DNA from: Candidatus Brocadia sinica JPN1 | Lineage (GTDB): Bacteria > Planctomycetota > Brocadiia > Brocadiales > Brocadiaceae | NCBI RefSeq assembly: GCF_000949635.1 | Contig: NZ_BAFN01000001.1 | Location: 868,001-932,000, forward strand | Direction of reading: 5' to 3' | DNA length: 64,000 bases | Shown: piece by piece, positions 1 to 12,594 of the stretch | Position numbering within the stretch: the stretch's first letter is position 1 | How the letters are laid out: each line of letters starts with the position of its first letter | The notes under the pieces: model-generated | The model's database searches: none | What the model was told of the DNA's origin: nothing | What the model saw: the letters and a program-made list of their open reading frames with translations, nothing else | Translations under genes and position numbers: made by a program

Positions 1-218
1 TTGAATGCCTGAAAAATACTGGTAAAATCATGAGAGGACAAAATACATCAAGACATCGAAAAGGCCATGAAAATATTGTTAAAGAAATTTTTCCTTGGTT
101 TTCATATAATCATGTGACTTTACACCGCACATTTCTTGTATGTATCCTTATCGGCGTTAATTCGTGGCTCAATAATTTTAATTATATGAGAAAAGCCACC
201 TATTTTTGGAGTACTTTC

Positions 219-635
219 ATGGAAACATTTTTCCTTGCCTTACTTACAGCCTTTATTTGGGGATTCGTGCCTTTTCTGGAAAAGGTAGGACTCTCGTCTG
301 TTGAACCCACTGCAGCGTACATGGTAAGATGTTCAGGCGTTTTTCTGGGTGTTGTAATCCTTATCGCTTTTACCCCTCAGTTTCCATCCTTTGGGAAGAT
401 GGGGGTTAAATCGATTTTCTTTCTTATCTTTGCTGGTATTCTGGCGGGTGTTGTAGCACAATTGGTATTTTACAAGGCGCTCAAGATGGGTGAGATATCA
501 AGGGTTATTCCCATTACAAGCTGTTACCCGTTATTTACATTTCTTTTGGGTTGGATTTTCCTGGGCGAGGAGGTGACTCTGTCCAAGGTAGCAGGTATGT
601 TACTTATTTTAGGCGGGATATTGCTCTTAAAATAG
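219..635 (+). CDS. EamA-like small membrane transporter
   Basis: Predicted integral membrane protein of 138 residues, about four to five hydrophobic helices, matching one half of a drug/metabolite (EamA) transporter. Full EamA permeases carry two such repeats in about 300 residues, so this one would have to dimerise; single-repeat members are known. The start at 219 is preferred because GGAG lies 7 bases upstream and the protein opens directly with a hydrophobic segment (METFFLALL). The frame is open upstream to the window edge, but that part is basic and unlike EamA. The stop is 6 bases before the histidine kinase, so the two are probably cotranscribed. The substrate cannot be inferred. Confidence 0.7.
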   Translation: METFFLALLTAFIWGFVPFLEKVGLSSVEPTAAYMVRCSGVFLGVVILIAFTPQFPSFGKMGVKSIFFLIFAGILAGVVAQLVFYKALKMGEISRVIPITSCYPLFTFLLGWIFLGEEVTLSKVAGMLLILGGILLLK

Positions 636-641
636 TTTTTT

Positions 642-2576
642 ATGAATTATTACAGAAACATCTTCAAAAGTATTAAGATACAACTCATCTCTTATATCTG
701 TCTTTTAACCACCGTTCCGTTATTGTTTGTTTGTGTCGTGGAATATTACAGTAGTAAGAGCGCCATTGAGCAGCGGATGATCGAACAACTGACCTCCATT
801 GCTGACCTGAAAAAAAGTGAGCTGAACAATTGGCTGGAAGAGCGGTTGACCGATACCTCGGTAATTGCCCGCAACAAGGTGCTTGCTGCGGCAGCAACAA
901 GCCTTTTACAGCAGAGGAGAAGATTTGAAAGTATCGATGAGTTGAGAAAATCAGAAGCCGGCCGTATAAATTATGAACGGATTTTAGACAATCTTCATGT
1001 CCTGAAGCAGTTTTATAAACATTACAACGTTATCTCTATAATAGACGGTGCAAATGGAGAGGTGGTTATATCCACATACCCCGGGATCGTGGGTAAAACC
1101 CTGAGCTCGTTTGGCAGTTATATAGATACCCTCGGGAAAAAAGAGGTAGCCGTGAAGGATATCTACACCTCTGAACTGACCGACCAGAATTGTATGACGT
1201 ATTTTTGCCCGGTTTGCATGACAGATACCATTACCCTGGAAAGCAGCGATATTATCATTGGCGCCATATTATTGGATGTTAATGTGAAAAACAGCGTTGA
1301 ACCGGTGATTCGCAACTGGCCAGGAATGGGAACAACAGGAGAAACACTCCTGGTGAGGAGAGAAGGGAATACCATTGTCTATTTAAATGACCTTCGTCAC
1401 AAGGAGGGAGCGGCCTTGCAATTTATCAGCCCCATCCATTCTACCCTGGATATCCCTTCGGTGTTAAGCTCCGGTGGCGAAGAAGGGATTAAAGAATCTG
1501 TAGACTACAGGAATGTTCCCGTACTTTCTGCCTACCGGCACATCCCCGTTCTCAATTGGGGACTTGTGGCAAAACAGGATTTAACAGAGGCATTTGCCCC
1601 GGTTGAAAAACTGAAAAACCGCGTTGTCGTGCTGATCTTTGTTTGTATTACCGTTGTCATTGCTCTTGGCGTTTCATTCACCAATCGTATTACGCAACCT
1701 CTGTTACAACTGGCGCAGGGGGCGAAGGCTATTGGTTCAGGAAATCTTGACCATCGTATATCGATTCTATCGGAGAATGAGGTGGGTCTTCTTGCCAAAG
1801 AATTTAATCACATGGCTGCAAAACTGAAAGAGTCATATTCAAATCTGGAACAAAAGGTGGAGGAACGAACGGCCCAGTTGCTGCGAGCCGAGCGACTCGC
1901 TGCGGTAGGTGAGCTTGCAGCCGAGGTGGCCCATGAAATCAATAACCCGTTAGGTGGTTTGCAGAATTTTGCCAGCATGATTGAACATGAACCGGAAAAT
2001 GTCCCGCAAACAAAGAAGTACGCCACTCTTATGCTGGAAGGACTGAAGCGGGTTGAGTTGATTGTAAAACGTCTTTTAACATTTTCCCGACCCTATACAC
2101 TTCGTATTTCTGAAAACAATATTAACGTGGTCATAAATAATTCTCTTGAGTTTGTAGAGCACAGGATTGAACCCAGCCTTGTACGTATTCATAAAGAACT
2201 TAACGAATCCCTTCCCATGGTTTTCATAGATGTGGATCACGTCTCTATGGTATTCATCAATATGATGGTTAATGCCCTTGAGAGTATGCCAGACGGGGGA
2301 ACACTGACCATAAAGACAGATACTTGCAAGAGACATGAAGGGTGTGTTACCGTTTATATTAGTGACACCGGATGCGGTATCCAGGGAGAAATTATGGATA
2401 AGATTTTCGAGCCCTTTTTTACCACGAAGAACAAAGAAGGTGAAAAAGGGCTGGGGATGGGATTGGCAATATCGAAGAGGATTATCGAGGATCACGGCGG
2501 GGAAATCCGTATAGAAAGTCACGTGGGGGAAGGGACTACCTTTCTGGTATGCCTTCCCAGTCGCAGAGGAGAGTGA
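642..2576 (+). CDS. Cache/HAMP sensor histidine kinase
   Basis: Membrane-bound sensor kinase of 644 residues. A first membrane helix (about 14-35) is followed by a roughly 290-residue periplasmic sensor region with Cache-like features, a second helix (about 328-347), a HAMP linker (about 348-400) and a short coiled coil. The HisKA phosphoacceptor is His431 in AEVAHEINNPL. The ATPase domain carries an N box (NMMVNALESM), DTGCGIQ, FEPFFTTK and GLGMGLAI. This is the NtrB/ZraS-like group that pairs with sigma-54 activators, and such a regulator follows 10 bases downstream. The sensor domain holds a CPVC pair that could bind metal or sense redox; this is inference. The signal sensed is unknown. 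Confidence 0.93.
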   Translation: MNYYRNIFKSIKIQLISYICLLTTVPLLFVCVVEYYSSKSAIEQRMIEQLTSIADLKKSELNNWLEERLTDTSVIARNKVLAAAATSLLQQRRRFESIDELRKSEAGRINYERILDNLHVLKQFYKHYNVISIIDGANGEVVISTYPGIVGKTLSSFGSYIDTLGKKEVAVKDIYTSELTDQNCMTYFCPVCMTDTITLESSDIIIGAILLDVNVKNSVEPVIRNWPGMGTTGETLLVRREGNTIVYLNDLRHKEGAALQFISPIHSTLDIPSVLSSGGEEGIKESVDYRNVPVLSAYRHIPVLNWGLVAKQDLTEAFAPVEKLKNRVVVLIFVCITVVIALGVSFTNRITQPLLQLAQGAKAIGSGNLDHRISILSENEVGLLAKEFNHMAAKLKESYSNLEQKVEERTAQLLRAERLAAVGELAAEVAHEINNPLGGLQNFASMIEHEPENVPQTKKYATLMLEGLKRVELIVKRLLTFSRPYTLRISENNINVVINNSLEFVEHRIEPSLVRIHKELNESLPMVFIDVDHVSMVFINMMVNALESMPDGGTLTIKTDTCKRHEGCVTVYISDTGCGIQGEIMDKIFEPFFTTKNKEGEKGLGMGLAISKRIIEDHGGEIRIESHVGEGTTFLVCLPSRRGE

Positions 2577-2586
2577 ACATTTTCAA

Positions 2587-3990
2587 ATGAAAAGCAAAAT
2601 ACTTATTGTTGACGATGAAAAACTTATGCGTGTATCCCTTGAAGACAAATTGGTGAAAGAGGGATATGCCGTCGCTTGCCTGTCAAATGCCATTGAAGGT
2701 CTCAAGGTACTACAATCAACAAACTTCGATGCGGTAATAACCGATGTACGACTGCCTAAGATAGATGGTATAGAATTTTTGAAGGAAATAAAAAAGTTAT
2801 CTCCGGATACCATTGTTATCATCATGACTGCCTATGGTTCCATTGAAAATGCGGTTCTAGCGATGAAAGAAGGGGCATATGACTACGTGACAAAGCCTTT
2901 TTCCCTGGAAGAATTACTGATTAAACTCAGGAAGGCACTCAAACACAAAGATGTGGTTGCAGAGAACATCTTACTAAAACAGCAGGTACTGAGCCAATAC
3001 GGTTATGATAATATGATCGGAAAGAGCGATGCTATGAAGCACGTGTTTGAAATTATAAACACGGTGTCCAATCGTGATACCACAATCCTTATTCAAGGAG
3101 AGAGCGGTACCGGAAAGGAACTTACAGCAGGGGCTATTCATTACAATAGTAACCGGCGGAATGGGCCTTTTATAAAGCTCAGTTGCGCCTCTTTAAACAA
3201 GGAAATCCTGGAAAGCGAACTCTTTGGACATGAGAAGGGTTCTTTTACCGGCGCGATAAAAACGAGGCGAGGCCGTTTTGAACTCGCCGATGGGGGCACG
3301 ATATTTCTCGATGATGTAGATGATATTCCATTAGAAATGCAGGTGAAACTCCTGCGAGTCCTTCAGGAACGGGAATTTGAACGCGTTGGAGGGGAAGAAA
3401 CGATTCCCGTCAATGTCCGCGTTATCTGCGCAACCAAAAAAGACCTGAAAAAGCTTGTCCAGGAAGGGCGGTTTCGTGAAGACCTGTATTATCGGCTCCA
3501 TGTAGTCACTCTTCATCTTCCACCCTTAAGGGAAAGGAAGGAAGATATACCGCTCCTGGTAAATTACTTTATGAAAAAATATGCCGCACAGCAACGTGTC
3601 GTAATTAATTCAATATCTCAGGAAGCGCTTCATTTGTTGTTATTGTATAATTGGCCGGGAAACATCCGGGAATTAGAAAACGCTGTGGAACATGCCGTGG
3701 CGTTTTGCACCTCTGGTGCAATTCTCTCAAAAAATCTCCCACAAAATTTAACGCAGGGAGAGACCTCTTCTGGTATATTTCCTGTCGAACTTTCTACGAT
3801 TGACTCCCTGGACCTGCAGGAGACCCTTAGTGAAGCTGAAAGAAAGCTCCTTTTGTGGGCATATCAGAAGACAAACGGTAACCAGGTGCGCATGTCAGAG
3901 ATATTGCGGATACCTCGTACTACACTTCAAAATAAGCTCGTGAAGTATAACATAACAAAAACCCATATCCCCGCCACTGAACAGACATAG
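2587..3990 (+). CDS. NtrC-family sigma-54 response regulator
   Basis: Cytoplasmic transcription activator of 467 residues. The receiver domain (1-120) has phosphoacceptor Asp53 in TDVRLPK. The AAA+ domain (about 145-380) has Walker A GESGTGKE at 171-178, the sigma-54 contact loop GSFTGA at 218-223 (Ser replaces the usual Ala, a known variant) and Walker B IFLDDVDD at 239-246. A Fis-type helix-turn-helix sits at about 425-460. Walker B shows Asp-Asp at 242-243 where most of the family has Asp-Glu. It is encoded with its cognate kinase, and a sigma-54 promoter lies about 415 bases downstream in front of the peroxidase operon, the obvious candidate target. Confidence 0.95.
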
Positions 3991-4197
3991 TGCCGCATAG
4001 CTGCAATCCCATTCCATTTTTTCGTCGACACTATTCACAGATTCAATACATTGTCCGGTTAAAGCATTATCCCATTCAGACTGAGCAGAACTATGATAAT
4101 AAAATGAAGTATTCTTTCTTTTATTTTCTCCGTGTTCTCTGCGTCCTCTGTGGTAAACTATACATTAAAAGAAAGCTCCTGCCAGTGAATGGGCGAG

Positions 4198-4221
4198 ATA
4201 GTGCCCACATTTAGGCACTAT
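4198..4221. promoter_or_regulatory. Inverted repeat, candidate activator site (UAS)
   Basis: Perfect 8-base inverted repeat ATAGTGCC, 8-base spacer, GGCACTAT. It lies about 190 bases upstream of the -24 element at 4405, a normal distance for an enhancer bound by an NtrC-type dimer. A second 12-base palindrome, CTTCCCGGGAAG, is at 4262-4273. Function as enhancer is inferred from position and symmetry. A transcript-end hairpin is less likely because it is 200 bases past the regulator stop and no T run follows. Confidence 0.45.
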
Positions 4222-4261
4222 TCTAAGTCTTATATTTTCAAGGCTTAATACAAAATTTATT

Positions 4262-4273
4262 CTTCCCGGGAAG
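4262..4273. promoter_or_regulatory. 12-bp palindrome upstream of sigma-54 promoter
   Basis: Perfect palindrome CTTCCCGGGAAG about 135 bases upstream of the -24 element. It could be a second activator site; only symmetry and position support this. Confidence 0.25.
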
Positions 4274-4404
4274 CATTCCAGACTTACCCTAGTCAAATTT
4301 CAAGTGTTACCGATTTCTAAAAAAACAAACAACTTTGTTTTGAATCTCCTTAAGGTATGAATTTATAAATAGTTATAGAACTACATACCCACGTGAATTT
4401 AACC

Positions 4405-4419
4405 TGGCACTCTCATTGC
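4405..4419 (+). promoter_or_regulatory. Sigma-54 (-24/-12) promoter
   Basis: TGGCAC, 5-base spacer TCTCA, then TTGC, matching the sigma-54 consensus TGGCAC-N5-TTGC at every defined position and flanked by C on the left and T on the right as usual. The expected start of transcription is about 4430, giving a leader of roughly 110 bases to the 23-residue peptide gene. It is on the same strand as the peroxidase operon and downstream of the NtrC-type regulator gene. Confidence 0.8.
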
Positions 4420-4540
4420 TAATTCTATAAACCAGATATTTACCTACGACAGAGAATAGAAGGGAAATTAAACCCGAATGAAAGGAGGTGGTTCCGGAGG
4501 AACTGTTTAGACGAGTGAAATAGCGGAAGGAGGATAAATT

Positions 4541-4612
4541 ATGATGTGTTTTACTGTTCTTGTCGGTCTTATTGTTGGATTTGCAATTTTTTATGTAGTG
4601 AAGGAGGTTTAA
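4541..4612 (+). CDS. 23-residue single-helix membrane peptide
   Basis: Small open reading frame (MMCFTVLVGLIVGFAIFYVV, then KEV) that is almost entirely one transmembrane helix with a charged C-terminus. It has a strong ribosome site (GGAAGGAGG, ending about 7 bases before the ATG), and its stop lies one base before the peroxidase ATG. The peroxidase ribosome site AAGGAGGT is embedded in the last codons, so translation is likely coupled. It is the first gene after the sigma-54 promoter. No family was recognised; a membrane anchor or assembly peptide for the cytochrome, or a translational leader, are both possible. The ribosome site and spacing argue that it is translated. Confidence 0.6.
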   Translation: MMCFTVLVGLIVGFAIFYVVKEV

Positions 4613-4613
4613 C

Positions 4614-5639
4614 ATGTTTACAATGACTTTAAAATTAGGTTTAATTGTGGCCCTTGGTATAGCAGGGGTGATGACAACTGGAGAGTTGATGGCGGGTACG
4701 CCGCAGGTAGTAGCAACGATCCAGACGGGGCCGGAGTGGGAGCCTCTTCCCAGGGGTGAGCCATTGACGGTGCCTGAGGTACATTATCGGGTAAAACACT
4801 CACCATTCAAGAGTGAGCTGGTGAGGTACGGGCAGTTCATATTCAATGATGCATCATGGGGGTTGCAGGGTGAGTATGCATGCGCCAGCTGCCATTATGA
4901 GAGGGGACAGACGACGGGTTTGATCTGGGACCTTGGAGATGAAGGATGGGGAAGCTGGAAGAACGTGAAGTATATCCGTGGCGGAAGGTATTTGCCTCCG
5001 TTCAGGCATGAAGGGTTTACGGGTCATCCGGATGAAATCGTAGGTGCAACAAGTTCGCTGGACAGGGTGTGTGGAAGAGACCCTGGGTTTGTGTTCAGGA
5101 GCGAGAACTTTTCGCCGGAGAGGTTAGAATCTTTGATTTGTTACATCAGGGCATTGGAGTTTACGGGAAGTCCGTTCAGGAATGCGGATGGCAGTTTGAC
5201 AGAGGCGGCAAAGAGGGGTGAGAAGTTATTTAACGACCCTGCTGTGGGATGTGCAGAGTGTCATCCGGGGGATGCAATGGATCCGAAAGCCTTGTTTAGC
5301 GATGCACAGACCCATGATGTGGGAACCGGTCGTGTAGGAGTGAAGGGTTTCAGGTCAACGCCGGGTAAGGTATTTAACATGCAGGCATTGAATGCCGGTG
5401 AGGATCCTTATGGCGAGGAGAGCGATACGCCGATCATTGGGTTGGACCTGGTAAAGGAATTTGATACGCCGACGCTGAGGGACATCTATGCATCAGGCAC
5501 GTATTTCCATGACGGGAGCGCCAGGACGTTGATTGATACGATCAACAACACGGTAAATGATAAGGACATGCATGGAAGGACGTCACACCTGAGCGCTCAG
5601 GATTTGCAGGATTTGGTGGAGTTCCTGAAGGCGTTGTAA
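4614..5639 (+). CDS. Di-heme cytochrome c peroxidase (CCP/MauG family)
   Basis: Exported di-heme c-type cytochrome of 341 residues. An N-terminal signal sequence (about 1-27, ending near LMAG) is followed by two CXXCH heme sites: Cys90-Cys93-His94 (CASCH) and Cys213-Cys216-His217 (CAECH). Length and the spacing of the two hemes fit the bacterial cytochrome c peroxidase/MauG family, which reduces peroxide or performs long-range oxidations in the periplasm. YFHDGSART near residue 300 is typical of the C-terminal domain. Codon use is strongly biased toward G-ending codons, unlike the neighbours, and the ribosome site is near-perfect, suggesting very high expression. It is probably driven by the sigma-54 promoter at 4405. 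Peroxidase versus another oxidase role cannot be decided here. Confidence 0.92.
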   Translation: MFTMTLKLGLIVALGIAGVMTTGELMAGTPQVVATIQTGPEWEPLPRGEPLTVPEVHYRVKHSPFKSELVRYGQFIFNDASWGLQGEYACASCHYERGQTTGLIWDLGDEGWGSWKNVKYIRGGRYLPPFRHEGFTGHPDEIVGATSSLDRVCGRDPGFVFRSENFSPERLESLICYIRALEFTGSPFRNADGSLTEAAKRGEKLFNDPAVGCAECHPGDAMDPKALFSDAQTHDVGTGRVGVKGFRSTPGKVFNMQALNAGEDPYGEESDTPIIGLDLVKEFDTPTLRDIYASGTYFHDGSARTLIDTINNTVNDKDMHGRTSHLSAQDLQDLVEFLKAL

Positions 5640-5650
5640 AGTACCGGATT

Positions 5651-5678
5651 GAATGACCCGTCATATGGCGGGTCATTC
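5651..5678 (+). terminator. Hairpin after peroxidase gene
   Basis: Perfect 10-base stem (GAATGACCCG / CGGGTCATTC) with an 8-base loop, 11 bases after the peroxidase stop. No clear T run follows, so it may act as a terminator or as a 3' stability hairpin that dampens read-through into the next gene. Confidence 0.6.
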
Positions 5679-5729
5679 AGTCTATTAAAAGACTATTTTG
5701 ATAAATACTATCTTCAGGAAGGAATGCAA

Positions 5730-6500
5730 ATGAAGATTGCGTGTAAATACAAGACGATATTACTATTGTTATTATCCGTAAGTTTCGTATTGTTCAATAC
5801 TATTTCGAATAAGCTCTATGCATGCGGTGGCGGTGGTTCATCGCCTGATGGCATTACTCTAAAATTACGGGGAGTAAATGATCTTGCAGAGGCCATTCAA
5901 CTAAAAGCCACTTTACAAAAGAACGAGGCGATCAAGTGCGCCAATATCAGCCCTCATAAAACTGAGATATGTATTTCCACCCTCTGCCCGGGAGCAATCA
6001 CAGAGGAACAGATTATAAAAGCCATTAAAGATGCAGGCTATGATGCATCGTTACCCGATTACCTTACTTTTAAAATTGATAATTTCATACATGAATCAGA
6101 TGTGAAAAGATTAAGGGAGTGCCTGGATGAACTACCGGGAGTTACAACAGCCAATATCGACCTTAATACAAAGGACATCACTATAAACTATTACGAAGGC
6201 TGGATCCGATTTGCCAGAAAGATAGTCAAAACCCTTGAAGATAACGGATTTAAGGCTATAGTGCCCATAGACACAATTACCTTTGAGACAGAGGGTATGG
6301 CTGAGGTTGATGCCCACGATGTGCGGGCATATCTCTTGGGTATATTTGGAGTGTCCGGTTCGGATGTCGATATTGGTACCAATGAAGTGAAGGTTAGTTT
6401 TTATCGGGGATGGACGACGAAAGAAAAACTTATAAAGACCATTGAAGAGCGTGGAAACACAAAGGTAAAACACGACCTTATGGTCCTGAAAACTTCGTAG
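5730..6500 (+). CDS. Exported protein with three degenerate HMA-like folds
   Basis: Predicted exported protein of 256 residues. The start at 5730 is chosen because AGGAAGGA lies 7 bases upstream and the product opens with a signal peptide; LYAC at its end could be a lipobox, making this a lipoprotein. The mature part appears to be three consecutive units of about 70 residues with the beta-alpha-beta-beta-alpha-beta rhythm of heavy-metal-associated (HMA) domains: each starts with a strand such as ITLKLRG, YLTFKID or TITFETE and ends in a helix of the TLEDNGFKA type. None has the CXXC metal site. It sits just downstream of the di-heme peroxidase hairpin. Metal binding is doubtful; a scaffold or protein-interaction role is conjecture. 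Confidence 0.65.
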   Translation: MKIACKYKTILLLLLSVSFVLFNTISNKLYACGGGGSSPDGITLKLRGVNDLAEAIQLKATLQKNEAIKCANISPHKTEICISTLCPGAITEEQIIKAIKDAGYDASLPDYLTFKIDNFIHESDVKRLRECLDELPGVTTANIDLNTKDITINYYEGWIRFARKIVKTLEDNGFKAIVPIDTITFETEGMAEVDAHDVRAYLLGIFGVSGSDVDIGTNEVKVSFYRGWTTKEKLIKTIEERGNTKVKHDLMVLKTS

Positions 6501-6599
6501 TGCTGTGCACCCGTAACCAAATTGACCCTCTTTTCCCTCCTTGCAAGGAGAGACGAAGTAAGACGAACTTAAGTTCGCCCTCCTGTATAGTGTAAAAAC

Positions 6600-6628
6600 T
6601 TGTTGAAAAGAAGTATTTACCGTATTAT
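6600..6628 (+). promoter_or_regulatory. Sigma-70-type promoter
   Basis: TTGTTG, 17-base spacer, TATTAT, about 125 bases upstream of the transglutaminase-like gene. The -10 is near consensus and the -35 matches four of six. Confidence 0.45.
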
Positions 6629-6752
6629 AACTAGAGTAAACGTAACTAAAATTCGGTTTTGTGGATTACAGCATGTGGGTTACGGTATCGGCAAAAAACA
6701 GAAATCCGCAATCCAAAATCCAAAATGAGCGGAGTTGCAACTGAAGCCATTT

Positions 6753-7523
6753 ATGAAACATTTGGTAATGATTGTAACCACCTTAGTTTTATCGGGGATA
6801 TGTTGCGTGGAAACATATGCGGATGTTTCGTATGCCGATTTATTTCTTACGGGAAGGGGTTATAAACCGGTTGAAGATATCTGGACAAAAAAGCCATTGA
6901 CGGCTCATTCGCCGGATGGGAGCTGCATACCTGACAATCTATTTTACAAAGAATGGTGTATTAACACCTTCAAGAACGGCGAACAAATTTATGAGGCGTA
7001 TAGAGAAATAGCTTTTGATATTGACTACCGGGCCGAACCACCAAAGACAGACTACTGGCAGACACCAGGAGAAACTCGCCAAAGCAAAAAGGGCGATTGT
7101 GAAGATTCGGTCTTCCTGTTTTTTTCTAATCTCTCCGGACTGGATATTAATGGCGACCTGGTATGGGGCTGGGTGACAGACAAGGATACTTCGATTGCCT
7201 TTGCCCATGTATGGTATCAATTATTTGATAAGCATGGCAGGGCATATATTGTGGAGGGTTTTTCGAAGGAGTGGAATGGAATCATCCCTCTTGAGACGAT
7301 TACCAGGGTAGAAGAGCGTGTGCCAACTTTGATGTTACGGCATGACCAGGTAAATTACCTGATAGAGAAGGCAACTCCAATTTCCGATCATGGCTGGGGA
7401 CGGAAATTTGCAGAATCTTTTGAGGACGGGCAATTCTCCTGGGATATTTTCCTTAATAATACCTCGTTTGTTAAAGAAATCTTCAGGAAACTTCATGATA
7501 TGATTATCCGGTATAAGGGTTAG
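6753..7523 (+). CDS. Exported transglutaminase-like cysteine peptidase
   Basis: Protein of 256 residues with a signal peptide (MKHLVMIVTTLVLSG..., cleaved near VETYA). The start at 6753 is preferred over a TTG six codons upstream because it puts the signal peptide at the N-terminus. The core has the transglutaminase-like triad pattern: Cys in KKGDCEDSVFL, His in FAHVWYQL and an acidic residue in the following strand (IVEGFSKEW). This resembles the bacterial transglutaminase-like (BTLCP) group. The enzyme probably acts on proteins or peptides outside the cytoplasmic membrane; the substrate is unknown. A sigma-70-like promoter precedes it and a terminator structure follows, so it is likely its own transcription unit. 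Confidence 0.75.
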   Translation: MKHLVMIVTTLVLSGICCVETYADVSYADLFLTGRGYKPVEDIWTKKPLTAHSPDGSCIPDNLFYKEWCINTFKNGEQIYEAYREIAFDIDYRAEPPKTDYWQTPGETRQSKKGDCEDSVFLFFSNLSGLDINGDLVWGWVTDKDTSIAFAHVWYQLFDKHGRAYIVEGFSKEWNGIIPLETITRVEERVPTLMLRHDQVNYLIEKATPISDHGWGRKFAESFEDGQFSWDIFLNNTSFVKEIFRKLHDMIIRYKG

Positions 7524-7557
7524 ATCAAAATTTGAGAAATTCTTCGTTTTTAAAATC

Positions 7558-7645
7558 GGGCTTCTAAGAGGCGTACATTACTTCAAACCCCTTACTAACG
7601 AAAAAAGCCATTCTGAGCAGACGGAATGGTTCTTTTTAGAAGCCC
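7558..7645 (+). terminator. Nested inverted repeat with terminator hairpin
   Basis: An inner hairpin (AGCCATTC at 7606-7613 with GAATGGTT at 7624-7631) followed by CTTTTTAG looks like an intrinsic terminator for the gene ending at 7523. An outer perfect 10-base inverted repeat (GGGCTTCTAA at 7558-7567, TTAGAAGCCC at 7636-7645) encloses it, so the full 88-base segment can fold as one long structure, or may be a small inserted element. Confidence 0.6.
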
Positions 7646-7726
7646 TTTCATTTCCGACAAAACTTCATTGCCTCCGCTCACAGAAGAACACGAAAAATGT
7701 AATACCAGGTATAAGGTTTAAAATCT

Positions 7727-8662
7727 ATGACACTCTTCATTTATGATGAAATCTTCTTAAAACATGATACTGGCTTTGGGCACCCGGAAAATTCCCGGCG
7801 ACTGGAAAACACCCTACGGTATCTGAAAGAAAACCACCTCTGGGAACAATTAAGGGTGGAGAATCCCCGCGCAGCATCAATGCAGGAAATCGGCCTGATT
7901 CATCCGCAAACCTATATTGAGGCTATCAAACAAATCGCTGATACCGGCGGAGGATGGCTGGATAGTGATACCGTGGTTTCTACCGCCTCATATGATGTCG
8001 CTGTTCATGCAGCGGGGGCACCATTAACGGCGATAGATTTGATAATGAAAGGTGAAGGGAAGAATGCCTTTTGTCTCGTGCGTCCACCGGGTCACCATGC
8101 AATACCCTCAAGGGGAATGGGGTTTTGCCTTTTCAATAATGTAGCCATTGCAGCAAAATACATTCAATCCAGGTATCAGCTAGAAAAAATCTGTATCGTT
8201 GATTGGGATGTTCACCATGGAAACGGGACACAGGATGCGTTTTACCGTGACCCAACGGTGTTGTATTTTTCCATGCACCGGTATCCATTTTACCCTGGTT
8301 CGGGAAGGAAAGAGGAAGATGGACAGGGTAAAGGCAAGGGATTTACCATTAATATGCCTCTCCCGGCAGATACAACTTCTCAAGAGTATATCGCAGCGTT
8401 TCTGGATATCATGGAGCATCGGGTAAATCAATTTGCCCCGGAATTTATCGTTATCTCAGCAGGTTTTGATACCTATAGAAAAGACACCATTGGCGGGTTG
8501 AATTTGGATATACAGGACTTCCGTACGCTGACAGAAATTGTTATGAAGCATGCGGATAGATGCTGCGGCGGCAGGATTGTATCATGCCTTGAAGGTGGTT
8601 ACAATCTATCCGATCTTCCTTTATGTATAGAAGCCCACCTCAAGGCACTGCTTCAGGCATAA
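7727..8662 (+). CDS. Histone deacetylase-family zinc amidohydrolase
   Basis: Cytoplasmic zinc hydrolase of 311 residues in the arginase/deacetylase fold; bacterial members remove acyl groups from polyamines, acetoin-pathway substrates or proteins. Signature segments are in order: HPENSRRL near the N-terminus, RPPGHHA at 119-125 (catalytic His123-His124), DWDVHHGNGTQ from 159 (zinc ligands Asp161 and His163), SAGFD at 244-248 (third ligand Asp248) and LEGGYN near the C-terminus. All catalytic residues are present and the length is normal. It stands alone, convergent with rpsT. The physiological substrate cannot be told from sequence. Confidence 0.92.
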   Translation: MTLFIYDEIFLKHDTGFGHPENSRRLENTLRYLKENHLWEQLRVENPRAASMQEIGLIHPQTYIEAIKQIADTGGGWLDSDTVVSTASYDVAVHAAGAPLTAIDLIMKGEGKNAFCLVRPPGHHAIPSRGMGFCLFNNVAIAAKYIQSRYQLEKICIVDWDVHHGNGTQDAFYRDPTVLYFSMHRYPFYPGSGRKEEDGQGKGKGFTINMPLPADTTSQEYIAAFLDIMEHRVNQFAPEFIVISAGFDTYRKDTIGGLNLDIQDFRTLTEIVMKHADRCCGGRIVSCLEGGYNLSDLPLCIEAHLKALLQA

Positions 8663-8947
8663 TTAACTTTTTTGTGGCGCCGCGGTTTTTATTTTATTCA
8701 ATTGTTTTGTCAGACGAGACTTCTTTCTGCTGGCAGTATTTTTATGTAAAATCCCCTTCGCTGCTGCTTTGTCTAATTTTTTTATCGCAAGCCGGAGTTT
8801 TTCTTCGGCTGACGGAATATTCCCTTCCTTCACAACACCTAAAAAATGCTTTATTTGAGTTCTCAGCGCAGATTTGCGAGACCTGTTTCTCAAATTACGC
8901 TTTATGTTTTGCCTGAGCCTTTTTTTGGCCGATTTCATTGTTGGCAT
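8663..8947 (-). CDS. rpsT: 30S ribosomal protein S20
   Basis: Small basic protein of 94 residues (MPTMKSAKKRLRQNIKRN...), typical of bacterial S20, which binds the 5' domain and helix 44 of 16S rRNA. The start at 8947 is supported by AGAGGAG about 10 bases upstream; longer in-frame extensions are not S20-like. A TTGACT-17-TACATT promoter is just upstream. Its stop abuts the end of the convergent deacetylase gene with no visible terminator between them. Confidence 0.96.
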   Translation of the reverse strand: MPTMKSAKKRLRQNIKRNLRNRSRKSALRTQIKHFLGVVKEGNIPSAEEKLRLAIKKLDKAAAKGILHKNTASRKKSRLTKQLNKIKTAAPQKS

Positions 8948-9017
8948 GGTTATGATGCTCCTCTCATTCAGATTAATAAATTCAAATATTATCAGATTCG
9001 AAAACCAGAAGACGTAT

Positions 9018-10772: not shown

Positions 10773-11216
10773 ATGGAATTTATTGATAAAAAAGTTGTTT
10801 CTATCAATAACCTTATGTTGAAGTTTCGCAAGAAAAAGTGTTCTCCGAAAAATTTGTTGATCTTGTTTCCCCATTGCATCCAGAATTCACAGTGCAAGCA
10901 AAATGTCAGGAACGACCTGAACGAATGTAAACGTTGTGGGAAATGTAAAATCAAGGATTTACTGGAATTTTCAGAGAAATATGGAGTGAATATTAGCCTC
11001 GCCACAGGGGGGCGCGTCGCCCTTCAAAGGGTAATGGCTGAAGACATACATGGGGTAATAGCGATTGCCTGCGAAAAGGAACTCCGGACGGGTTTGATGG
11101 CAGCTATGTCTAAGGCAATATTTGCAGTTCCTAATCTAAGACCTCACGGATATTGCAAGGATACGGATGTATATCTGGATGAGGTAAAAGAAGCTATTGA
11201 AAAATTCCTCACATAA
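10773..11216 (+). CDS. DUF116 family protein
   Basis: Cytoplasmic protein of 147 residues. A cysteine-rich N-terminal part (CIQNSQC, then CKRCGKCKI) precedes a Rossmann-like part (ISLATGGRVALQRVM, GVIAIACEKELRTGL), the DUF116 pattern. The cysteines suggest a metal or FeS site. No biochemical role is established that I can name. In this window it lies between fmt and rsmB and overlaps the rsmB start by 20 bases, implying coupled translation and a link to ribosome or initiator-tRNA work. The start at 10773 (MEFIDKK) is the first sensible ATG. Confidence 0.85.
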   Translation: MEFIDKKVVSINNLMLKFRKKKCSPKNLLILFPHCIQNSQCKQNVRNDLNECKRCGKCKIKDLLEFSEKYGVNISLATGGRVALQRVMAEDIHGVIAIACEKELRTGLMAAMSKAIFAVPNLRPHGYCKDTDVYLDEVKEAIEKFLT

Positions 11217-12594
11217 GACAGACGTTCGTTATGCAGGTATCCGGGTACTAAGAGAGGTTGATGAAAAAGAGGTTTTTGCCCAGGAACTTATCTCTGAAAG
11301 ATGTGCACAGAGTGATTTATCGAAACGGGACAAAAACCTTCTCACAGAATTAGTAAACGGCGTTATTCGCCATCGTTTACCCCTTGACACCCTCATCTCC
11401 TTTTTTTCGAATATACCCTTAAATAAGATAGAACCATGGGTATTATACGCCCTGCGTGTGGGTCTCTATCAAATTGCCTATTTGGACAGAATCCCCCTTT
11501 CCGCCGCGATAAACACGTCTGTAGCACTCGTAAAAAAATTGGTCCGACGGACGGACGCGGTCAGATTTACCAATGCAGTTCTCCGGGCAGCCGAAAGAAG
11601 TATTCAAAATAAATCTGCATGCGAACCGGAGATTACCGACCTGCAAAAGGCCCTGTACAGAAGGAAAAACATATGGTGTACATTTCACCATCCGATCTTT
11701 CCCGATCCGGCTAAACATCTTACCTCTTTCCTTGCAATTAATTATAGTCACCCTGAATGGTTGATAAAACGTTGGATCAGCAGGTATGGGAAGGAAAAAA
11801 CCGTTGAGATGTGCAAAGCCAACAATCTTGCCCCAAGGGTATTCCTTCGCGTAAATCAGGGGAAAATATCCACCCGGGAATTCCTTGCTTTGCTCGATAA
11901 AGATGGTATCAGCGCACGCACTATCAACACCGCAGTCGTTGTTGAAAATATTGCAGTTTTTGAAATTCCGGGGTTTGCAGAAGGATTGTTCTTTGTGCAA
12001 GACATATCCGCTATGAAGGTTGCGGAATTCCTCAAGATAGAAAAATCGAACACCGTGTTGGATATGTGCGCAGCGCCTGGAGGGAAGACGACTCATATTG
12101 CAGAATTTTTGGGGAACACGGGGTGGATATATGCGTTAGATATTTCTGCAAAACGTTTACAGTTGACCAAAGAAAATTGTCTGCGGATGGGAATTCATAA
12201 CGTCTCTATTGTTTGTGGCGACGCATCTGACGAAAAGGCCCCTTTCCGGATGAAATTTGATCGCATACTCATAGATGCACCGTGTTCCAATACGGGAGTA
12301 CTTTCACGTCGCGTGGAAGCCCGGTGGCGGTTAAAAGAAAGCGATATAAATAAACTTGCCGCCCTCCAATACTCTATACTAAAAACGGGCGCCTCTTTGC
12401 TAAAATCTAACGGCTATCTGGTGTATAGCACCTGCAGTATCGAACCAGAAGAAAATCAGGGTATAATAAAAAAATTTATGGGTAGTGAGCCCCAATTTTC
12501 CCTGGACGCAGAGGAGCACTATTTACCCGACATGGATAAAGGGGATGGAGGATACATGGCAAGGCTTTGCAAAAGGCAGGTTTATAGCTACTAA
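11197..12594 (+). CDS. rsmB: 16S rRNA m5C967 methyltransferase RsmB
   Basis: S-adenosylmethionine-dependent rRNA cytosine-5 methyltransferase of 465 residues. A NusB-like RNA-binding domain (about 1-145) is followed by a Rossmann methyltransferase domain with VLDMCAAPGGKTTHIAE, DAPCSNTG (Cys363, product release) and YSTCSIEPEEN (Cys413, catalytic). Both cysteines of the RsmB/RsmF mechanism are present. The ATG at 11197 lies inside the DUF116 gene end. The stop is 29 bases from the end of a convergent lipoprotein gene. Confidence 0.95.
   Translation: MKNSSHKTDVRYAGIRVLREVDEKEVFAQELISERCAQSDLSKRDKNLLTELVNGVIRHRLPLDTLISFFSNIPLNKIEPWVLYALRVGLYQIAYLDRIPLSAAINTSVALVKKLVRRTDAVRFTNAVLRAAERSIQNKSACEPEITDLQKALYRRKNIWCTFHHPIFPDPAKHLTSFLAINYSHPEWLIKRWISRYGKEKTVEMCKANNLAPRVFLRVNQGKISTREFLALLDKDGISARTINTAVVVENIAVFEIPGFAEGLFFVQDISAMKVAEFLKIEKSNTVLDMCAAPGGKTTHIAEFLGNTGWIYALDISAKRLQLTKENCLRMGIHNVSIVCGDASDEKAPFRMKFDRILIDAPCSNTGVLSRRVEARWRLKESDINKLAALQYSILKTGASLLKSNGYLVYSTCSIEPEENQGIIKKFMGSEPQFSLDAEEHYLPDMDKGDGGYMARLCKRQVYSY

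What the first reader, a model, noticed from the sequence alone, without database searches (positions are those of the whole stretch)
642..5678. Apparently self-contained sigma-54 circuit controlling a di-heme peroxidase operon
Seen in sequence: a Cache/HAMP kinase, an NtrC-type activator with a GSFTGA loop, then a full-match -24/-12 promoter (TGGCAC-N5-TTGC at 4405), two upstream palindromes (4198-4221, 4262-4273), a small peptide gene and a peroxidase with exceptional codon bias and a hairpin end. Known: NtrC-family activators bind 100-200 bases upstream of such promoters. Inferred: the local regulator controls this operon and the kinase senses an envelope signal such as peroxide or a nitrogen oxide. 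I know of no described circuit of this composition, but I could not search.
Basis: partly seen in the sequence, partly recalled or inferred. Interest (0 to 1): 0.75.

Follow-up and report, generated by a model that had tools for sequence, protein, structure and literature searches.

The report
Private switch for lone hydrazine-synthase subunit
In this ammonium-oxidising (anammox) bacterium a sensor and an activator protein appear to be dedicated to switching on one extra, stand-alone copy of a piece of hydrazine synthase, the enzyme that defines anammox, which gives a concrete handle on how that enzyme is regulated.

Summary
The features are real, but the "peroxidase" is the gamma subunit of hydrazine synthase (HzsC; 738.8 bits, cut-off 625; PDB 5c2v chain C). 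The genome has two full hzsBCA operons plus this lone hzsC. One operon (locus A) has a paralogous kinase/activator pair in front.

The sigma-54 circuit is supported by comparison. At 15 of 15 intact orphan loci examined, operators TGCC-N8-GGC lie 22 bp apart, 175-199 bp upstream of TGGYAY-N5-TTGCT. Across 62 genomes this operator pair lies before orphan hzsC in 16 (one decayed), all carrying this activator; other matches are two strays and one duplicate. Locus A has different operators.

The orphan is homogenised with the operonic copies inside each genome while regulator and operators stay locus-specific: concerted evolution. One genome keeps a decayed hzsBC there.

Corrections: the 4262-4273 palindrome is not conserved; an operator at 4180-4195 was missed; the signal sensed is unknown. 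Everything is sequence comparison; nothing was tested experimentally.

The parts
642..2576 (+). sensor histidine kinase, dCache_1-HAMP-HisKA-HATPase_c; lacks a PAS-like segment (named by eye) that the paralogous kinase of locus A has
2587..3990 (+). NtrC-type response regulator (receiver, AAA+ with GSFTGA loop, Fis-type HTH with RTTLQNKL in the presumed recognition helix)
   Evidence: tandem pair at 15 of 15 intact orphan hzsC loci examined
4224..4229 (.). TAAGTC, largely conserved; inverted partner GACTTA at 4281-4286; role unknown
   Evidence: alignment, read by eye
4405..4419 (+). -24/-12 sigma-54 promoter TGGCAC-N5-TTGC; transcription start predicted near 4431 (inferred)
4480..4491 (+). 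GAAAGGAGGTGG in the 5' leader: complementary to the 16S rRNA 3' end, about 120 nt before the hzsC start
4541..4612 (+). 23-aa ORF MMCFTVLVGLIVGFAIFYVVKEV, hydrophobic, its end overlapping the hzsC ribosome-binding site; recognisable at 6 of 15 orphan loci
4614..5639 (+). orphan hzsC, hydrazine synthase subunit gamma, 341 aa, two CXXCH haem motifs (residues 90, 213) and a CGRD motif (153-156)
5646..5683 (+). stem-loop straight after hzsC, kept at 10 of 10 orphan loci examined; probable 3' end of the transcript (inferred)

Best explanation
This is a dedicated NtrC-type two-component, sigma-54 circuit that controls one transcription unit, a lone extra copy of hzsC. Supported by comparison: activator gene, a tandem operator pair about 195 bp upstream, the -24/-12 promoter, hzsC and a 3' stem-loop form one conserved unit, and the operator pair lies almost nowhere else. 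Inferred: the Cache kinase phosphorylates the regulator in response to an unknown extracytoplasmic signal; regulator dimers bind the two operators on one face of the helix, oligomerise, loop to the sigma-54 polymerase and start transcription near 4431. Supported: the mature protein is identical to the operonic gamma subunit in this genome, and the coding sequences are kept alike within genomes, which I read as gene conversion. Inferred function: an inducible supplement of gamma subunit, the proposed NO-to-hydroxylamine half of hydrazine synthase, fed into the same enzyme pool as the two full operons. The locus is probably the remnant of a third hzs operon that kept gamma only.
For: Identity. 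Three hzsC copies, two of them with hzsB and hzsA. One rpoN match. Operator pair and promoter at 15 of 15 intact loci examined; the activator gene lies upstream on the same contig at 14 of these 15. Operator pair over 62 genomes: 16 at the orphan hzsC locus (G035 decayed), 2 elsewhere, 1 extra copy at the same locus, reversed control 1. All 16 genomes have the C-type activator (73% identity or more), found at E <= 1e-150 in 23 of 62 (one a fragment); 0 of the other 39 has the operator at hzsC. Locus A has different operators and RTTLRNRL (RTTLRNKM in three Scalindua) where C has RTTLQNKL (RSTLQNKL in G035); the A pair gives one match in each of 19 of 62 genomes, 18 of them directly behind an A-type activator gene, reversed control 1. 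Extra DNA in five loci lies between activator gene and operators, not between operators and promoter. Within-genome orphan against operonic hzsC 95.8-99.9% DNA identity in five genomes, ten orphans between genomes 80.3-95.0%; homology confined to the coding region in 5 of 5 genomes. Decayed hzsB and hzsC behind the same operators in G035. 3' stem-loop 10 of 10.
Against: No expression, start-site or binding data. The genomes are related, so the counts are not independent. In five Jettenia/Loosdrechtia-like loci operator 1 overlaps the 3' end of the activator gene, so coding constraint may add to its conservation there (coordinates). Loop variants at the activator (GAFTSA in B. pituitae, GAFTGA in WS118 and G035) are not explained. 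In B. carolinensis operator and hzsC lie on another contig than the activator: none within 10 kb upstream, and no operator in 5 kb behind the activator gene. Seven genomes with the activator show no operator before their contigs end, 0.1-5.5 kb on, and could not be tested further. In G026 and G028 the orphan protein differs from the operonic one at 5 and 8 residues. Ten of 33 genomes of the family lack the C-type activator at the threshold used. Extra gamma without alpha and beta has no demonstrated use. Kinase partnership rests on gene order only.
Confidence: 0.72

Rival explanations
1. The orphan gamma works outside the HZS complex, as an inducible NO-binding or NO-to-hydroxylamine reductase made when NO is in excess; the sigma-54 circuit is a nitrogen-oxide stress switch.
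For: Only gamma is kept at intact loci although the decayed locus of G035 also has hzsB. Gamma carries the haem shown to bind NO (PMC12607021, abstract and passages). It has its own, probably monocistronic unit.
Against: The orphan protein is identical to the complex subunit in three of the five genomes compared, which argues against a separate role. No NO-sensing domain was found; the kinase has a Cache domain. Gamma activity without alpha and beta is not shown.
Confidence: 0.2
2. The orphan is a decaying leftover with no present role, its sequence kept young only by incidental gene conversion from the operons.
For: G035 shows that the locus can decay; 10 of 33 genomes of the family lack the C-type activator at the threshold used; the small ORF is recognisable at only 6 of 15 loci.
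Against: Operators and promoter are intact at 15 loci over several genera and the 3' stem-loop at 10 of 10 examined. Homology to the operonic copies stops at the coding ends while the control region stays locus-specific.
Confidence: 0.12
3. An ordinary NtrC-type regulator with many targets that happens to sit beside hzsC.
For: The genome has 23 strong sigma-54 activator domains and six other exact TGGCAC-N5-TTGC sites, some of them just before unrelated genes.
Against: The operator pair occurs once in the own genome and nearly only upstream of hzsC in 62 genomes. Single or degenerate sites elsewhere cannot be excluded.
Confidence: 0.1

Closest known systems
Kuenenia hzs gene cluster kuste2854-2861 with sigma-54 response regulator kuste2857
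   Same: A sigma-54 response regulator lies beside hydrazine synthase genes (PMC6423088 passages); locus B of the own genome has the same layout
   Different: The locus B regulator is another paralog (42% to the window's; RGTFRYRL helix); no TGGYAY-N5-[TC]TGC site was found at five type B loci and no site of 11 bits or more near the hzs genes of L010 other than one inside hzsB, though a weak GG-N10-GC, TGGTATAGTTTGTGC, can be seen by eye; that locus has complete hzsBCA
Locus A of the same genome: kinase and activator in front of hzsBCA
   Same: Paralogous kinase and activator (62% for the activator), GG-N10-GC promoter, paired operators, same leader element
   Different: Operators TGRCC-N6-RGTC 77-80 bp apart (8 of 12 loci examined) instead of TGCC-N8-GGC 22 bp apart; own -24 element is CGGTAC, too weak for the scan; a PAS-like segment in the kinase; full operon as target
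NtrB/NtrC, AtoS/AtoC and ZraS/ZraR sigma-54 two-component systems
   Same: Domain layout and (inferred) mode of action; AtoC model 501.4 bits
   Different: Below the curated cut-offs (AtoC 714, NtrC 558.6, ZraR 760); other target
Bacterial di-haem cytochrome c peroxidase and MauG
   Same: Fold family of the gamma subunit (CCP_MauG; homology stated in PMC12607021)
   Different: Scores 738.8 bits as hydrazine synthase gamma and 34.6 as MauG (cut-off 443.85)
Partial hzsBC copy in Kuenenia MBR1
   Same: Incomplete extra hzs copy of near-identical sequence (PMC5854607 and PMC7438415, passages)
   Different: Has hzsB and hzsC; in the Kuenenia-like genome G031 (likely equivalent, my inference) no A- or C-type kinase or activator lies in the stretch fetched (L088); its one listed activator hit (A-like, 61%) is elsewhere

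Membership tests
hydrazine synthase gamma subunit (HzsC) | score over the curated NCBIfam NF052341 cut-off | tested here: met
   738.8 bits, cut-off 625; 664.6 bits to 5c2v_C
hydrazine synthase gamma subunit (HzsC) | two CXXCH haem sites and the extra Cys/Asp motif near haem gamma-I | tested here: met
   CASCH 90, CAECH 213, CGRD 153-156; equating CGRD with the third haem Cys and Asp168 of Kuenenia is my inference
hydrazine synthase gamma subunit (HzsC) | encoded with hzsB and hzsA | tested here: not met
   lone copy; no hzsB or hzsA in window 1-9000; the two other copies of the genome meet it
hydrazine synthase gamma subunit (HzsC) | assembly into the alpha-beta-gamma complex | not testable with these tools
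   needs biochemistry
sigma-54 / NtrC-type two-component circuit | rpoN in the genome | tested here: met
   one Sigma54_DBD match, 207 bits
sigma-54 / NtrC-type two-component circuit | activator with receiver, AAA+ with GAFTGA-like loop, Fis-type HTH | tested here: met
   (GSFTGA)
sigma-54 / NtrC-type two-component circuit | -24/-12 promoter conserved in relatives | tested here: met
   15 of 15 intact orphan loci examined
sigma-54 / NtrC-type two-component circuit | activator-specific upstream sites | tested here: met
   tandem operators 15 of 15; all 16 genomes with the operator at hzsC have the activator; binding itself not shown
sigma-54 / NtrC-type two-component circuit | phosphorylation, binding and activation | not testable with these tools
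   bench work needed
AtoSC / NtrBC / ZraSR equivalogs | score over the curated cut-off | tested here: not met
   AtoC 501.4 of 714; NtrC 454.7 of 558.6; ZraR 430.7 of 760; AtoS 255 of 646
di-haem cytochrome c peroxidase / MauG | score over the MauG or MbnH curated cut-off | tested here: not met
   34.6 of 443.85; 55.5 of 362.85; the general Pfam CCP_MauG model is matched, 39.7 of 25.6

The most novel reading that the evidence does not exclude
An anammox-specific regulatory split: paralogous kinase/activator pairs with diverged recognition helices and operators control separate hydrazine synthase loci, while gene conversion keeps the enzyme sequence common; the orphan locus delivers gamma alone, possibly as an inducible NO-to-hydroxylamine module working apart from the full complex.
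Probability: 0.2. Interest if true: 0.82.

Novelty: new variant of a known kind. Interest (0 to 1): 0.62.

Why it matters
Hydrazine synthase defines anammox and makes up a major part of the protein of these cells (PMC7438415 passages), yet in the listings and passages I saw nothing on a promoter or operator controlling it. Here an activator, an operator pair and a promoter are named for two of the three hzs loci, so binding and reporter tests can be done in a laboratory strain although anammox bacteria themselves are hard to manipulate (recalled). RNA-seq work reported the Kuenenia hzs copies as too alike to tell apart (PMC7438415); the orphan's distinct leader, first codons and 3' end offer locus-specific markers. 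The system also shows enzyme genes evolving in concert while their switches diverge.

Tried and rejected
Peroxidase reading: rejected by family scores. Second palindrome 4262-4273 as operator: rejected, not conserved (by eye). Conserved uORF (M/V)KGGGSGG shared by locus A and the orphan leader: rejected as a peptide, since relatives keep the GAAAGGRGGTG-like core but mostly not the reading frame (by eye). CPVC in the kinase sensor as a redox motif: rejected, the second Cys varies among relatives. Sigma-70 promoter before orphan hzsC: the consensus scan found 6 matches in 3990-5760 (3.1 expected), all 9 of 12, none on the + strand within 4060-4610. Relatedness: genomes are not independent, so 15 of 15 and 16 of 16 are not separate events.

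Rows dropped or to be read with care: L040, L049 and L059 were printed in the type C list but have no C-type activator in the DNA held and, by eye, none of the operators; they were left out of later counts. At type A, operator pairs were found at 8 of 12 loci by my pattern; L090, L031 and L035 showed one operator and L033 none; its -24 element reads TGGYAY at 9 of 12, CGGTAC in the own genome and B. pituitae, GGGCAT in Loosdrechtia (where TTGC was required by the pattern). The hzsA query was out of frame, so its hzsA identities there are wrong; it was remade. One search stopped with an error half way and was finished. In one search the 22-bp spacing was part of the pattern; the result is that all 15 loci satisfy it (in one search the two sites were found separately at 10 of 11 loci; at L050 the first site ends GGCC). 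The stem-loop was examined at 10 of the 15 loci. Within-genome hzsC identity was computed for five genomes with an orphan and for two with operonic copies only. The plasmid search gave only distant hits (<60% identity) and was not followed. Paper searches were swamped by unrelated papers.
Full report
WHAT IS THERE. The window lies at C1:868001-932000 of a 4.08-Mb genome in 3 contigs; from size and gene content I take it to be Candidatus Brocadia sinica or a close relative (recalled, not shown by a call). The di-haem gene is hydrazine synthase gamma, hzsC: 738.8 bits against a curated cut-off of 625, and 664.6 bits to chain C of the Kuenenia enzyme structure 5c2v.

THREE COPIES. The genome has three complete hzsC genes and two hzsB genes. 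Locus A (minus strand, 674-683 kb) is kinase-activator-hzsB-hzsC-hzsA; locus B (2792-2802 kb) is the Kuenenia-type cluster with another sigma-54 regulator, then hzsB-hzsC-hzsA. A and B share a 4953-bp block at 99.88%. The window's copy, locus C, has only hzsC. Its kinase and activator are paralogs of those of locus A: activators 61.8% identical.

PHYLOGENETIC FOOTPRINT. Twenty-two bp is two helical turns, which fits two dimers side by side (inference). The activator gene lies upstream on the same contig at 14 of the 15; B. carolinensis is the exception. In five Jettenia/Loosdrechtia-like loci the first operator overlaps the 3' end of the activator gene (coordinates), so coding constraint may add to its conservation there. 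In five other loci with extra DNA between activator gene and hzsC, including genes that look by eye like toxin-antitoxin genes, that DNA lies between the activator gene and the operators, not between operators and promoter. Leader length varies more: GG to hzsC start is 153-217 nt at 11 loci and 261-801 nt at Jettenia ecosi, G026, G028 and G033.

SPECIFICITY. The operator pair was sought in 62 genomes of the order: 21 match rows in 17 genomes. Two rows are the same near-palindromic sites read on the other strand (G017, G035). Sixteen genomes have it at the orphan hzsC locus (decayed in G035), one of them (G038) with a second copy 3.2 kb further upstream; two matches, in G007 and G014, are elsewhere; the reversed pattern gives 1 match. 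The C-type activator (73% identity or more; E <= 1e-150) is in 23 of 62 genomes, one as a fragment, and all 16 genomes with the operator at hzsC are among them; none of the other 39 has it there. In the remaining 7 of the 23 the contig ends 0.1-5.5 kb behind the activator gene with neither operator nor hzsC. In B. carolinensis activator and operator-hzsC lie on different contigs. Locus A has its own operators, TGRCC-N6-RGTC, paired at 77-80 bp at 8 of 12 loci examined, with a GG-N10-GC promoter (TGGYAY at 9 of 12; CGGTAC in the own genome). As a 62-genome pattern this pair gives one match in each of 19 genomes and 1 in the reversed control; 18 of the 19 lie directly behind an A-type activator gene by the coordinates, the exception being G029. 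The presumed recognition helices differ: RTTLQNKL at C (RSTLQNKL in G035), RTTLRNRL at A (RTTLRNKM in three Scalindua), RGTFRYRL or RGTLRYRL at B. At locus B no comparable -24/-12 site was found by pattern.

CONCERTED EVOLUTION. Over 945 nt of the mature coding region the orphan is 99.15 and 98.73% identical to the two operonic copies here, with 0 amino-acid differences; in B. pituitae 99.37% (0 residues), G033 99.89% (0), G026 97.78% (5), G028 95.77% (8). Ten orphans of different genomes are 80.3-95.0% identical to each other, and a FastTree tree groups copies by genome. The activators do the opposite: C-type orthologs 73-95% to the window's, A-type paralogs about 58-65%. Homology between orphan and operonic copy begins at nt 16-24 and ends within 8 nt of the stop in 5 of 5 genomes under strict scoring; the looser extends it 4 nt past the stop. 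Gene conversion limited to the coding region explains this; I did not test other explanations formally. In G035 the same kinase, activator, operators, a TGGCGC-N5-TTGC site and the leader element precede a broken hzsB and a broken hzsC, so locus C probably once held at least hzsBC; no hzsA remnant was found in the 4 kb held downstream.

TRANSCRIPT. The leader carries GAAAGGAGGTGG, matching the complement of the 16S rRNA 3' end (L119; L119 identified as 16S by eye), about 120 nt before hzsC and therefore not its start-codon ribosome site. The 12-mer GAAAGGRGGTGR occurs 13 times in the genome, the 16S gene included, against 1 for the reversed control. At least four lie some 100-140 nt before a start: hzsB at locus A, orphan hzsC, a CXXCH-rich gene that I call HAO-like by eye, and a short ORF in L114; several others lie just before a start and look like ordinary ribosome sites. 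The leader position recalls the stabilising Shine-Dalgarno (STAB-SD) of Bacillus thuringiensis cry genes, known to me from memory and a search listing. The 23-aa ORF is recognisable at 6 of 15 loci, with differences falling at codon positions 68:32:80, weak support for coding. The 3' stem-loop is kept at 10 of 10 loci examined with changes on both arms (by eye), so the unit is probably monocistronic.

HOW IT MAY WORK. Haem gamma-I of hydrazine synthase binds NO and is proposed to reduce it to hydroxylamine (PMC12607021, abstract and passages). hzs genes rise under ammonium limitation in Kuenenia MBR1, with copies too similar to tell apart (PMC7438415, passages); they fall after acute hydrazine exposure (PMC12053348, passages). 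Neither study concerns this locus. The most economical reading is an inducible supply of extra gamma for the common enzyme pool; a separate NO-handling role is possible. The signal is unknown: the kinase has a Cache domain and lacks the PAS-like segment of its locus A paralog.

KNOWN OR NEW. The parts are of known kinds. A sigma-54 regulator in the Kuenenia hzs cluster is in print (PMC6423088, passages), and two identical HZS copies in Brocadiaceae with different surroundings are in print (PMC12758564, passages; the words hzsC and orphan do not occur there). A sigma-54 regulon survey has no occurrence of anammox or hydrazine in its main text (PMC12316311). In the listings and passages I saw (searches; 37 and 80 swamped by unrelated papers) nothing describes the orphan locus, its operators or its concerted evolution; the library lacks most subscription papers, so this is not proof of absence.

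Noticed in passing
window 4480-4491; also G000:C1:679036-679047 and 2806576-2806587: A full anti-Shine-Dalgarno complement (GAAAGGRGGTGR) lies in the leaders of locus A hzsB, orphan hzsC and a HAO-like (by eye) multihaem gene, about 110-140 nt before the start codon; possibly an mRNA-stabilising ribosome site.
   Followed up: partly
window 4224-4229 and 4281-4286: TAAGTC and its inverted partner GACTTA, between operators and promoter, are partly conserved at the orphan loci (by eye); perhaps a further protein site.
   Followed up: no
L010 5039-6433 and other type B loci: The locus B activator has GAFTSA or GAFTNA instead of GAFTGA in several Brocadia and Jettenia-like genomes (GAFTGA in L053, L089, L094 and the Scalindua rows), and no TGGYAY-N5-[TC]TGC site was found at the five type B loci; it may have lost sigma-54 activation.
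   Followed up: partly
L009 5983-10935 and L010 7316-12268: The two hzsBCA operons share 4953 bp at 99.88% identity, from just upstream of hzsB to downstream of hzsA.
   Followed up: no
L095 (G035:C7), hzsC remnant 11209-12054 on the reversed strand: Decayed hzsB and hzsC behind intact-looking operators and leader: a natural loss of the third hzs locus.
   Followed up: partly
window 5748-7523: A heavy-metal-associated-domain protein and a transglutaminase-like protein follow orphan hzsC, and relatives of one or both do so in several other genomes.
   Followed up: no
L098 (G038:C19) 6065-6101 on the reversed strand: A second copy of the operator pair lies 3.2 kb upstream of the one before orphan hzsC, with no sigma-54 site of the searched form beside it.
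   Followed up: no
L018, L025, L084, L087, L092: The first operator overlaps the 3' end of the activator gene in these Jettenia/Loosdrechtia-like loci, so the same bases code for the regulator's tail and may bind it.
   Followed up: no
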